From contig NZ_LOJI01000001.1 in the NCBI RefSeq assembly GCF_001595965.1, positions 464,178 to 528,177 on the forward strand: 64,000 nucleotides of DNA, given 5' to 3'. This document shows, one piece after another, positions 20,065 to 34,194 of the stretch. Position 1 is the stretch's first letter; the number at the start of each line of letters is the position of its first letter. The position numbers and the translations under genes were made by a program. Source of the stretch: Polynucleobacter yangtzensis. GTDB taxonomy: Bacteria; Pseudomonadota; Gammaproteobacteria; Burkholderiales; Burkholderiaceae. The notes under the pieces were generated by a model. That model was given only the letters and a program-made list of their open reading frames with translations. It did no database searches and was not told the DNA's origin.

Positions 20065-20913
20065 ATGGATATTTTAGGTTACTCAAGTTACGGATGGCTT
20101 CCTTCCGCACTTTATTTAGTGCTTTTGCTGGTTTTAAGCTTCAAAGCCAAGAGCGGCGTGGAGTCTAGGTTCTCAACAGCCATGGTTCAGGTCGCTATTT
20201 TTGTAATTTTGGTGATTCATGGGATACAGCTTCACGACTCTGTCTTCACTCCGGAGGGCTTTGTATTCGGTTTTGCGCAAGATTTATCCTTAATTGCATG
20301 GGTTGGCCTAGCCTTTTATTGGTTCCAGTCTTGGTTTTTGCCCATCTCCAGTCTGCGTTGGATGGCTCTAATGTTTGCGCTGATTTGCGCATTCCTCCCA
20401 AGTCTATTCCCCGGGGTCTTAATTTCGCCTAAGGCAGTTTCAGATCCTTGGTTCAAAGGCCACTTTGTTGTGGCGACGGTTGCAGTGGGCTTATTGAGTT
20501 TGGCAGCTATGCACGCCATGCTCATGAGCGTGCAAGATCGTGCCTTGCATCGTCAGTTAGCCATTATTCCCAATGGAAGACTAGCTCATTGGTTGGAGGA
20601 TCTTCCACCCTTAATGACTATGGAGAGCCTCCTATTCAACTTGCTCTACGTTGGTTTTGCACTTCTAAGTTTGACGGTCTTCTCTGGTTTGCTCTTTTCT
20701 CAAACTCTGTTTGGTAAACCGTTGGTCTTTGATCACAAAACCATTTTTGCTTTGGTCTCATGGGTCTTGTTTGCAGGACTGCTTTTGGCTCGCTGGCGAG
20801 TAGGTTTGCGCGGTAGAGCTGCAATTCGTTGGGTATTAAGTGCTTACACAGCTTTACTGCTTGCTTATGTAGGCAGTCGCTTTGTGCTTGAAGTTATTTT
20901 GCAGAGAGTGTAA
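20065..20913 (+). CDS. CcsA/YpjD-type cytochrome c assembly family membrane protein
   Basis: A 282-residue protein with about eight hydrophobic segments. It resembles the inner membrane CcsA-like (YpjD/HemX-type) family that is commonly adjacent to ffh in betaproteobacteria. Conserved-looking histidines (VIHGIQLH; FKGHFVVATVAVGLLSLAAMHAMLM; FDHKTIFALVSWVLFAGLLLARW) fit haem-interacting segments. A full haem-lyase role is not supported, because no CcsB partner or WWD motif is visible. Its end overlaps the ribosome site of the next gene, so the two are probably co-translated. Confidence 0.78.
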   Translation: MDILGYSSYGWLPSALYLVLLLVLSFKAKSGVESRFSTAMVQVAIFVILVIHGIQLHDSVFTPEGFVFGFAQDLSLIAWVGLAFYWFQSWFLPISSLRWMALMFALICAFLPSLFPGVLISPKAVSDPWFKGHFVVATVAVGLLSLAAMHAMLMSVQDRALHRQLAIIPNGRLAHWLEDLPPLMTMESLLFNLLYVGFALLSLTVFSGLLFSQTLFGKPLVFDHKTIFALVSWVLFAGLLLARWRVGLRGRAAIRWVLSAYTALLLAYVGSRFVLEVILQRV

Positions 20914-20916
20914 TTC

Positions 20917-21735
20917 TTGTTTAAGTGGATTTTATTAATTGCAGGTGCTGGCCTTGTTTATCTTTGGATTAAAGGTAAAAAGCAGGCTAAGCTCAATGCT
21001 GAAAATCCCCCCAAACCCAGTAAAGATAAGTCTAAGAAGGCTACCGATCCTGAGGTCATGGTGCAGTGTCAATATTGCAAAGTGCATCTTCCGCAACCAG
21101 AAGCAATTGCTTATGACAATCGTTTCTACTGCTCAAAAGAGCATCTTCATGCTCTCGATTCTGAAGGCTGGATTGGTAATGCATATTGGCGCATTTCGCC
21201 TAACCAAGATATCAGACCTGAAAATATTCAGCCTGATCTTGCGGTAATTCATCACATTAGTCTGCCACCTGGCGAATTTAGAAAGCAGGATTCCAGCGGA
21301 TATATCGTGGATTTTTTTCAAAATAAGCTAGACCCAAATCAGCATCCCTATTTTGCGGAAATTGCCGATCAAAAAGTATCAAGCCATTTCTTGATAACAC
21401 GCTCTGGATCGCTGGTGCAGTTCGTATCTACTCGCAAGAAAGCTTGGCATGCTGGGGTTTCTGAGTTTCTTGGTAGAGAAAAGTGCAATGACTTTTCTAT
21501 TGGGATTGAGTTAGAGGGTGATGGTGACACACCATTTGAGGTCGCTCAATACCAAGCCTTAACAAACCTCATACAAAAATTGACAAGCTCATACCCTGAC
21601 TTGCAATTTGCTGGACACAGCGATATTGCTCCTGAGCGTAAAACAGATCCTGGAATAAATTTTGATTGGAAAAAGTTCCAAAAAGAGACAGGAATTTCTG
21701 ACAAAAAACTGCCTTTCGGTTTGGATTCTCGATAG
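20917..21735 (+). CDS. ampD: PP0621-type membrane module fused to AmpD N-acetylmuramyl-L-alanine amidase
   Basis: A 272-residue protein starting at TTG. Residues 4-18 form a membrane anchor followed by GKKQAK (positive, so the rest should be cytoplasmic). Residues 48-77 hold a Cys/His site (CQYCKVHLP, then FYCSKEH) like the small PP0621 family. From about residue 90 it is AmpD: VIHHISLPPGEF, WHAGVSEFLGREKCNDFSIGIELEG and AGHSDIAPERKTDPG, with zinc ligands expected at H112, H234 and D244. AmpD cleaves 1,6-anhydro-muropeptides in cell-wall recycling. Normal AmpD is soluble and about 180-190 residues, so this is a fusion. Confidence 0.88.
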   Translation: MFKWILLIAGAGLVYLWIKGKKQAKLNAENPPKPSKDKSKKATDPEVMVQCQYCKVHLPQPEAIAYDNRFYCSKEHLHALDSEGWIGNAYWRISPNQDIRPENIQPDLAVIHHISLPPGEFRKQDSSGYIVDFFQNKLDPNQHPYFAEIADQKVSSHFLITRSGSLVQFVSTRKKAWHAGVSEFLGREKCNDFSIGIELEGDGDTPFEVAQYQALTNLIQKLTSSYPDLQFAGHSDIAPERKTDPGINFDWKKFQKETGISDKKLPFGLDSR

Positions 21736-28034: not shown

Positions 28035-29606
28035 TTATAAAAAATGAGGGGATAAATGTGATGTTGATGAATGGATTGAGGGGTAGAGCACCCGAACGCG
28101 ATAACCCGCGGCATTTGGTGGAAGTGAAATAGGTAGCTCAATCTGCAAAAGCTCGCCAGAAGGGACCCCCTTTTTTAAAAAATCAGGATGAGTCTCTTGC
28201 CAAGCTTTGGGAAGCCATTCTTGCGGGGTAAATTGCAGTGATTTGATTTCAGATTCTTCTGCATCAGTCAAAGTAATTTCTAAATTTGGCGGTAAAACGG
28301 TAATAGCAAGACGATTTTGTATCTCAACTTGCAACACAGATTGATTTGCGACGCTTTTAAGCCCTTCTCGCGCGTTTTCTGGTGAAAGTTTGGCTGAAGT
28401 TATTTTCCAGGCGGCAAAATCGCTTACAGCGCGATCTAGACATCCTAGTGCGCGACAAAGTTTTACATCTACACGCTGTAAAACAGAAAATGAATTCACA
28501 AAAAAAGAATTTGATGTGCCATCAACGCGTGGTGCAAGTGCTGGAAGCAATGAATTTCTTGAGAGATGCTCTCCAAAAACCAGCAAGAGCAGCAATAAGC
28601 CTGCGTAAAGGACTAATTTAAGACTTTTTTTTTGAGCAGATGGAGCAAAAGCAGCATTGGCAGCACTTTGCTTCTCTTGGTTGAGGGTGCCATGCAAACA
28701 AACCCAACCTTCGCTCTCTTTCCAGACTGAAAGCGATAGCCATTGACTGTAAGTGGCAATTACCTCTTCAGCTTGGCGTGCAAGTACGCCCGATAAAACA
28801 ATCCGACCGCCCAATTTCGTCTTATTTACCAGGGCAGGAGCAAGCACTTGCAGTGGGTTGGCCAAAATATTGGCCATAACGATGTCGTATTTGGTTTCTG
28901 CAGCTAACTCTGTGGCACCTTCATTTGGTAACACGAAAGTAATGGTGGTGTTATTGATTTCTGCATTACTGCGCGCTGCAACCATGGCTTGTGGGTCGAT
29001 ATCAGTGCCAATAACAGGATTGCAACCTAACTTAGCTGCAGCAATTGCCAAGATTCCTGAGCCACAACCGTAATCCAAAAGGCTCTGGTTCTGAAGATTA
29101 TTTTGTTGCTCAAGCCAAAGTAGGCATAAATGGGTGGTGGGATGACTGCCTGTACCAAAGGCAAGTCCTGGATCAACGGCTAGGCAAATCGCATTTGGAT
29201 CGGTTGGCGCATCGTGCCATGAAGGCACTACCCAAATGCGTTCACCAATTTGAATGGGTGCAAATTGACTTTGAGTTAGTCGAACCCAGTCTTGCTCTTC
29301 AACTGTTTTTTCTTGGGGAGGCGCTAAGTTAAAGCCGGCTTCTTTTAAGGAGGCAAGCAGCTCTGGGATAAATTCCGCGCTGCCAGAAGCGTCAATCTCA
29401 GGATTAAATAGGGCAGTTACTGCAGATCGATCCCAGGCTTGCACTTCTGGTGAAAGCCCTGGCTCTCCGTAGAGGGGATTTTCATCGTATCCACCAGCAG
29501 CATCATCCTCAACGGTGACTGATAGGGCGCCCAAGTCCAAAAGCGCATCACCTAAAGGCTCTGCGGTTTCGGCAGCTACCGTGAATACCAGTTCACGATA
29601 AGACAT
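28035..29606 (-). CDS. prmA: Ribosomal protein L11 methyltransferase PrmA fused to a membrane-anchored DUF3426 domain
   Basis: A 523-residue protein, against about 295 for PrmA alone. Residues 1-309 are Prm[11 protein letters not shown] start, [15 protein letters not shown], the AdoMet motif [19 protein letters not shown] (about 176-194) and MANILANPL. PrmA trimethylates L11. A linker leads to a membrane helix at about 329-345 ([16 protein letters not shown]). The following 170 residues ([50 protein letters not shown]) resemble DUF3426. In Burkholderiales a separate zinc-ribbon DUF3426 gene usually follows prmA; here its zinc finger is gone and the remainder is joined in frame. Confidence 0.85.
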
Positions 29607-32793: not shown

Positions 32794-34194
32794 ATGCATA
32801 TACATATCCTGGGCATTTGCGGTACTTTCATGGGCGGCATTGCCGCAATCGCTAGACAAGCTGGACACCGCGTTACTGGCTGCGATGCCAACGTGTATCC
32901 ACCAATGAGTACGCAGCTTGAAGCTCAAGGTATCAAACTGATTGAGGGATTTTCGCCCGATCAATTATCTCAGTTTGAGACCATGCCTGATTTATTTGTA
33001 ATTGGCAATGTGGTTTCTCGCGGCAATCCTTTAATGGAGGCGATTCTCAATCAAGACTTGCCCTATATTTCTGGTCCGCAATGGTTGGGCGAACAAGTTT
33101 TATACGGCAGACATGTTCTAGCGGTTGCTGGCACACATGGCAAAACAACTACCTCAGCTATGCTGACTTGGATTTTGGAATTCAACGGTTATAAACCCGG
33201 TTACCTGATTGGTGGGGTGCCTCTGAACTTCACAGTATCTGCGCGCTTGGGTGAGAGTAAATATTTTGTGATTGAAGCAGATGAATACGACACTGCATTT
33301 TTCGATAAGCGCAGTAAGTTTGTGCACTACCGACCTCGCACTGCTTTATTAAATAATTTGGAATTTGATCACGCCGATATCTTTGCGGATCTTGCTGCAA
33401 TTGAAACCCAGTTTCATCATCTTGTCCGTACCGTTCCGGGCGATGGTTTATTGGTGGTAAATGGCGAAGAGCCTGCTTTAGCGAGTGTCATTACGCGTGG
33501 TGCGTGGGCCCCTGTAGAGCGCTTTGGCCAAGATCTTGCAAATGAATGGTCATTAATCTCACAGGAGAATGACGGTTTTGTTGTGCGCAAAGCTGGTAAA
33601 GAAGTGGCAACAGTAAAGTGGTCAATGGATTCAGGTGTTATGGGTCGGCACAATCAACTAAATGCTCTTGCAGCGATTGCTTCTGCCAATCACATTGGAA
33701 TTTCTCCTGTAGATTCTGCGCGTGCGCTGGCAGAGTTCAAGAATGTGAAGCGTCGTTTAGAAACCATTGGTGTTGCAAATGACATTACGGTCTACGACGA
33801 TTTTGCACATCACCCAACTGCAATCACTACTACCGTTGATGGTTTGCGTCGTCGCGTTGGTAAATCGCGCATCTTGGCTGTACTGGAGCCACGTTCAAAC
33901 ACAATGAAGCTTGGCGTGATGAAGGCTCAACTTCCTGGAAGTCTTGAAGCAGCCGATAAAGTATTTGCATATGGCGCAAACTCAGGAAAAGAGTCATTGG
34001 GTTGGAACTTGACTGAGGTTTTATCTCCACTCAACACAAAAGAGCAGGGTAAAGCACAAGCTTTCGATGATCTTGAAGCTTTAGTTAAGGCAGTTGCACA
34101 TGAAGCCAAGCCTGGTGATCATATTTTGGTTATGAGTAATGGTGGGTTTGGTGGCGTGCATCAAAAACTATTGAAAGCCATTTCGGCAAAGTAA
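32794..34194 (+). CDS. mpl: UDP-N-acetylmuramate--L-alanyl-gamma-D-glutamyl-meso-diaminopimelate ligase
   Basis: A 466-residue Mur-ligase. It begins [25 protein letters not shown], carries the ATP loop [15 protein letters not shown], and shows the Mpl-type [11 protein letters not shown] and [12 protein letters not shown] near the end. It attaches recycled murein tripeptide to UDP-MurNAc in the cytoplasm, so it works downstream of AmpD, which is at 21 kb in this window. Confidence 0.96.

What the first reader, a model, noticed from the sequence alone, without database searches (positions are those of the whole stretch)
20917..21735. AmpD amidase fused to a PP0621-type membrane and Cys/His module
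AmpD is normally soluble. Here it carries a membrane helix with positive charges on its cytoplasmic side and a CxxC...C...H metal-like site, giving a membrane-tethered wall-recycling amidase. The small PP0621 protein has no known role, so its fusion to AmpD hints at a link to muropeptide recycling or sensing. mpl, which acts later in the pathway, is 11 kb away.
Basis: partly seen in the sequence, partly recalled or inferred. Interest (0 to 1): 0.58.

Follow-up and report, generated by a model that had tools for sequence, protein, structure and literature searches.

The report
Membrane-anchored AmpD wall-recycling amidase
In the freshwater bacterial genus Polynucleobacter the cell-wall recycling enzyme AmpD is permanently fused to a small membrane-anchor and zinc-finger-like protein (PP0621) that close relatives encode as a separate gene next to it, which suggests that the uncharacterised PP0621 family serves wall recycling by holding AmpD at the membrane.

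Summary
ORF 20917-21735 (+, TTG start, 272 aa) is one open frame. It holds a complete PP0621 protein (NF041023, residues 3-77, 65.7 bits, cut-off 45) and a complete AmpD (NF008758, residues 78-262, 257 bits, cut-off 143). The genome is a Polynucleobacter. The fusion is genus-wide (118 of 121 genomes have both domains, nearly all in one frame) and arose once (clade support 99/84). The only split frame not due to contig ends is a 1-base shift beside an A run. Outside the genus the genes are separate but tightly linked: in all 88 family genomes holding both they lie within 5 kb, 62 within 250 bp, often with a 4-nt stop/start overlap. No conserved restart codon frees AmpD. Anchor and finger are under purifying selection about as strong as the catalytic domain; the linker is free. 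AmpD active-site residues are intact. AmpG, NagZ and Mpl are encoded; AmpE is not. Best reading: the sole AmpD, tethered by an N-out/C-in helix to the cytoplasmic face of the inner membrane, with a Cys3His finger against the catalytic domain. Zinc binding, membrane location and sensing are untested. New variant of a known enzyme; moderate interest, mainly as a clue to PP0621's role.

The parts
20065..20913 (+). Upstream neighbour: CcsA/CcsB-like cytochrome c assembly protein; its TAA ends 3 nt before the TTG start of the fusion, so translation is probably coupled
   Evidence: PF01578 89 bits; sequence; similar upstream gene in relatives with split genes
20903..20908 (+). AGAGAG, Shine-Dalgarno-like, 8 nt before the TTG
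   Evidence: read from sequence; purine-rich stretch at the same place in many relatives
20917..21735 (+). PP0621-AmpD fusion gene, 272 aa, TTG start
20920..20970 (+). Membrane helix, residues ~2-18 (FKWILLIAGAGLVYLWI)
   Evidence: hydropathy 1.85 over 17 residues; helix 2-29 in model; pN/pS 0.24
20971..20991 (+). Basic stretch KGKKQAK, residues 19-25, predicting N-out/C-in topology
   Evidence: net charge between helix and finger +1 to +8, mean +4.2, in 73 distinct fusions
20995..21054 (+). Low-conservation flexible linker, residues 27-46
   Evidence: conservation 0.46, pN/pS 0.67, pLDDT below 50 at 34-41
21055..21147 (+). Cys3His treble-clef-like finger, residues 47-77, putative ligands C51, C54, C72, H76
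   Evidence: invariant in 42 fusions; beta-hairpin plus helix, pLDDT ~90; weak Foldseek resemblance to FCS/TRASH fingers
21148..21171 (+). Junction, residues 78-85; H76 to the AmpD GW motif is 8 residues in all 73 distinct fusions
21148..21702 (+). AmpD domain, residues 78-262; H112, H234, D244 (zinc), E198, K242 (catalysis) match C. freundii AmpD H34, H154, D164, E116, K162
32794..34194 (+). mpl, murein peptide ligase (same pathway, not part of the transcription unit)
   Evidence: TIGR01081 683.9 bits

Best explanation
The gene makes a single inner-membrane-anchored AmpD. An N-out/C-in helix from PP0621 places a Cys3His zinc-finger-like module and, 8 residues later, a complete AmpD amidase on the cytoplasmic face of the inner membrane, where AmpG delivers anhydro-muropeptides. 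AmpD then cuts the anhMurNAc-L-Ala bond and Mpl re-uses the peptide. In other Burkholderiales PP0621 is a separate, tightly linked and often translationally coupled protein that probably recruits or positions AmpD at the membrane. In Polynucleobacter the pair became one chain once, at the base of the genus, most likely by loss of the stop/start between them in a shrinking genome. Shown: fusion, single origin, linkage, conserved catalytic and finger residues, selection on anchor and finger. Inferred: membrane location, zinc binding, partnership of PP0621 and AmpD, proximity to AmpG.
For: Both models pass cut-offs. The fusion is in one frame in essentially all Polynucleobacter genomes and forms one clade, 99/84, in 100% of bootstrap trees. 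The genes are linked within 5 kb in 88 of 88 family genomes that hold both, with a 4-nt overlap in many. No conserved restart codon. pN/pS: anchor 0.24, finger 0.19, AmpD 0.19, linker 0.67. Positive charge after the helix in 73 of 73 distinct fusions. It is the only AmpD in the genome. AmpG and NagZ present, Mpl present, AmpE absent. Active-site residues kept and AmpD fold recovered, 2y28 TM-score 0.82 by target length. Precedent for a membrane partner of AmpD: AmpE is described as an inner-membrane modulator of AmpD in P. aeruginosa (PMC2654508).
Against: No experiment. A few genomes keep AmpD without PP0621 (4 of 96) or PP0621 without AmpD (4 of 96), so neither strictly needs the other. In some relatives PP0621 is separated from ampD by a PilS-like kinase and a sigma-54 response regulator, so the linkage could be to the operon rather than to AmpD. 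The TTG start is weak, and an in-frame ATG at residue 48 could give a soluble finger-AmpD form. Foldseek matches of the finger are not significant.
Confidence: 0.6

Rival explanations
1. Passive streamlining: two neighbouring genes merged because the short gap or overlap was lost; PP0621 keeps an unrelated membrane job and AmpD is merely carried along, with no gain from tethering.
For: Polynucleobacter genomes are streamlined (PMC3308952). A second neighbour fusion, PrmA-DUF3426, lies 6.3 kb away and recurs in the genus. Overlapping or near-overlapping gene pairs are common in relatives. The two genes are dissociable in a few genomes.
Against: Linkage to ampD is older than the fusion and holds across the family. 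The junction spacing is fixed at 8 residues in all 73 distinct fusions, and only one genome shows a broken frame. This does not exclude independent selection on each half.
Confidence: 0.3
2. Two products: besides the full-length protein, restart at M48 or proteolysis releases a soluble finger-AmpD or AmpD, so the fusion behaves as two proteins.
For: ATG at the residue-48 position in 55 of 83 fused loci; the long linker is poorly conserved and probably flexible.
Against: M at that position is equally common in unfused PP0621 (35 of 45), so it is a family residue; only 7 of 55 have a Shine-Dalgarno-like tetramer before it. No restart codon between finger and AmpD core in the window and none conserved in the genus.
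Confidence: 0.08
3. The N-terminal helix exports the enzyme, giving a periplasmic, membrane-bound wall amidase like AmiD or AmpDh2.
For: N-terminal hydrophobic helix; periplasmic relatives of the same fold exist (and general knowledge).
Against: Basic residues follow the helix (+4.2 on average), predicting a cytoplasmic enzyme; no lipobox; the domain is the cytosolic AmpD equivalog, not AmiD/AmpDh; it is the only AmpD in a genome with AmpG, NagZ and Mpl.
Confidence: 0.02

Closest known systems
AmpD, cytosolic 1,6-anhydro-N-acetylmuramyl-L-alanine amidase (Citrobacter freundii 1J3G, 2Y28; NF008758)
   Same: Full domain, ~50% identity, all zinc and catalytic residues, same fold
   Different: Carries an N-terminal membrane helix, linker and Cys3His finger; residue 35 is His (H113) instead of Asn, though this residue also varies in unfused AmpDs
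PP0621 family protein (NF041023), no characterised function found
   Same: Full-length match; helix, basic stretch and finger conserved
   Different: Normally a free ~75-100 aa protein encoded near ampD; here it is the N-terminus of AmpD
AmpDE (AmpE, inner-membrane modulator of AmpD in gammaproteobacteria; PMC2654508)
   Same: Pairs AmpD with an inner-membrane protein encoded beside it
   Different: AmpE (PF17113) is a larger, unrelated membrane protein; the only weak hit in this genome is a CobD/CbiB protein
AmiD, AmpDh2, AmpDh3
   Same: Amidase_2 fold; AmiD and AmpDh2 are membrane-associated (general knowledge)
   Different: Exported enzymes acting on the wall side; no PP0621 part, opposite side of the inner membrane

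Membership tests
AmpD equivalog (NF008758) | Score above curated cut-off over the full model | tested here: met
   257 bits against 143, profile 4-186 of 190
AmpD equivalog (NF008758) | Zinc ligands His34/His154/Asp164 and catalytic Glu116/Lys162 | tested here: met
   H112, H234, D244, E198, K242 aligned to 1J3G/2Y28, invariant in 42 fusions
AmpD equivalog (NF008758) | Specific cleavage of anhMurNAc-L-Ala | not testable with these tools
   needs an enzyme assay
AmpD equivalog (NF008758) | Soluble cytosolic protein (usual property, not part of the sequence definition) | tested here: inconclusive
   prediction only: conserved membrane helix with positive charges after it; cytoplasmic side is still predicted, so the domain is an AmpD but its solubility is probably lost
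PP0621 family (NF041023) | Score above curated cut-off over the full model | tested here: met
   65.7 bits against 45, profile 2-71 of 71
PP0621 family (NF041023) | N-terminal helix, basic linker, CxxC...Cx3H site | tested here: met
   alignment with separate PP0621 proteins
Treble-clef zinc finger (LIM/FCS/TRASH-like) | Zinc knuckle, hairpin, helix carrying the last ligands | tested here: inconclusive
   predicted secondary structure fits; best Foldseek hits FCS 2w0t and TRASH 2das at E 0.26-0.27, not significant; LIM 11.1 bits, below cut-off
AmpE (PF17113) | Score above cut-off, gene beside ampD | tested here: not met
   the weak hit elsewhere in the genome is a CobD/CbiB protein
AmiD / AmpDh exported amidases | Lipoprotein or secretion signal, wall-side location | tested here: not met
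   no lipobox cysteine after the helix, basic residues after the helix; prediction only

The most novel reading that the evidence does not exclude
PP0621 is a dedicated membrane subunit of AmpD throughout Burkholderiales, a counterpart of AmpE, and its Cys3His finger tunes or positions the amidase next to AmpG so that imported muropeptides are cleaved at the membrane; Polynucleobacter has fixed this complex as one chain.
Probability: 0.3. Interest if true: 0.6.

Novelty: new variant of a known kind. Interest (0 to 1): 0.4.

Why it matters
PP0621 is a family of unknown function found in most Burkholderiales-order genomes sampled (124 of 150). A fusion fixed across a genus, plus tight linkage with a 4-nt overlap elsewhere, points to a role with AmpD. 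That makes the role testable in tractable relatives and would add a membrane-organised step to muropeptide recycling, a pathway that also controls beta-lactamase induction in many Gram-negatives.

Tried and rejected
Literature: 'PP0621' occurs in one held paper, only as a transposon insertion site called hypothetical; no held paper was found on AmpD in Polynucleobacter or on an AmpD fusion of this kind. The search with 'Asn35' found nothing. N35H was considered as a fusion-linked change and dropped, since unfused AmpDs also have A, S, G or H there. AmpE as a missing partner: weak hits are CobD/CbiB. Class-level candidates for other fusions (G429, G262, G417, G430) were plain AmpD with chance sequence upstream. 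Second PP0621-like sites in G484 and G602 belong to other membrane proteins, not AmpD. The split frame in G117 is one extra base next to an A run, probably a sequence error or recent lesion. The first tree labels counted 12 fused rows as split; corrected. One search was an uninformative placeholder query. The promoter/terminator scan gave nothing above chance.

Full report
What is there. The frame 20917-21735 (+) encodes 272 residues without interruption. It starts with TTG 3 nt after the stop of a CcsA-like gene (PF01578), with AGAGAG 8 nt before it. NCBIfam finds a full PP0621 protein (residues 3-77, 65.7 bits, cut-off 45) followed directly by a full AmpD (78-262, 257 bits, cut-off 143). The genome holds only this AmpD and only this PP0621. 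The closest loci in named genomes are Polynucleobacter.

Is it fixed? In 121 genomes of the genus, 118 have both models (all 96 that are at least 90% complete and at most 5% contaminated), in a shared open frame of about 264-326 codons except where contigs end and in G117. In G117 the two halves are out of frame because of one extra base next to an A run. In a tree of the AmpD domain (154 sequences) the fused rows plus G117 form one clade with 99/84 support, present in every bootstrap tree. So there was one fusion, before the deepest sampled Polynucleobacter split.

Where it came from. Of 96 family genomes outside the genus with either gene, 88 have both, always on one contig within 5 kb: 62 within 250 bp, 9 at 1-2 kb, 17 at 3-5 kb; 4 have PP0621 only and 4 AmpD only. 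In eleven of the loci read closely the PP0621 stop and the AmpD ATG overlap by 4 nt. Where the gap is about 3.7 kb, the one locus scanned has a PilS-like kinase and a sigma-54 response regulator between the two genes, and others have ORFs of the same size and appearance there, so an order ccsA-PP0621-kinase-regulator-ampD may be ancestral (inference). The order survey found PP0621 in 124 of 150 genomes, and no fusion to AmpD was found outside the genus. Losing the two-component genes and then the gap or overlap gives the fusion. Polynucleobacter is known for genome streamlining and few signal-transduction genes (PMC3308952).

Is it one protein? The window has no ATG, GTG or TTG between the finger and the AmpD core. 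In the genus 31 of 73 distinct fusions have one just after the finger, mostly leucine TTG codons at shifting places. An ATG at residue 48 is frequent, but equally so in unfused PP0621, and seldom has a ribosome-site-like tetramer before it. The start before the helix is TTG, GTG or ATG in all 73.

Anatomy. Helix 2-18 (hydropathy 1.85) is followed by KGKKQAK; net charge between helix and finger is positive in all 73, predicting N-out/C-in. The linker 27-46 is free to vary. The finger C51-x2-C54-x17-C72-x3-H76 is invariant, and the model shows knuckle, hairpin and a helix that carries the last ligand, a treble-clef-like plan; structural matches to FCS, TRASH and LIM fingers are suggestive but not significant. 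H76 to the AmpD GW motif is 8 residues in every one of 73 distinct fusions. pN/pS is 0.24 (helix and basic stretch), 0.67 (linker), 0.19 (finger), 0.19 (AmpD). The anchor and finger are thus maintained as protein. AmpD zinc ligands and catalytic residues match C. freundii AmpD; the overall model is moderate (pLDDT 74) but finds AmpD structures first.

How it most likely works. The pathway is present: AmpG, NagZ, Mpl. AmpE, the inner-membrane protein reported to modulate AmpD in P. aeruginosa (PMC2654508), is absent. The fusion would hold the only AmpD at the cytoplasmic face of the inner membrane, where AmpG releases its substrate. Shown here: fusion, origin, linkage, conservation. Inferred: membrane location, metal binding, recruitment role of PP0621, closeness to AmpG. 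The main rival is passive fusion by streamlining, supported by a second neighbour fusion (PrmA-DUF3426) in the same window. That rival explains the event but not the older linkage across the family.

Verdict. A real, genus-wide, single-origin variant of a known enzyme. Not a new kind of system; its value is as a clue to the role of PP0621. Genomes in the surveys other than those named are unnamed, so names for their genera are not given.

Noticed in passing
window 28035-29606 (-): PrmA (ribosomal protein L11 methyltransferase) is fused in one frame to a DUF3426 membrane domain; the same long match appears in the other Polynucleobacter genomes sampled, while other genera match over PrmA alone.
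   Followed up: partly
L082 1185-4883 (-), and similar ORFs in L080, L170: A PilS-like histidine kinase and a sigma-54 response regulator lie between PP0621 and ampD in some relatives; the fused genus has neither there.
   Followed up: partly
L064 ~1195-1206 (G117): One extra base next to an A run splits the fusion frame in an otherwise complete genome; sequence error or recent lesion.
   Followed up: partly
L174, L175 (G484, G602): A second PP0621-like Cys/His site sits in 336-361 codon frames of membrane proteins of one genus, unrelated to AmpD.
   Followed up: no
G121, G196, G220, G228: PP0621 present but no AmpD above cut-off.
   Followed up: no
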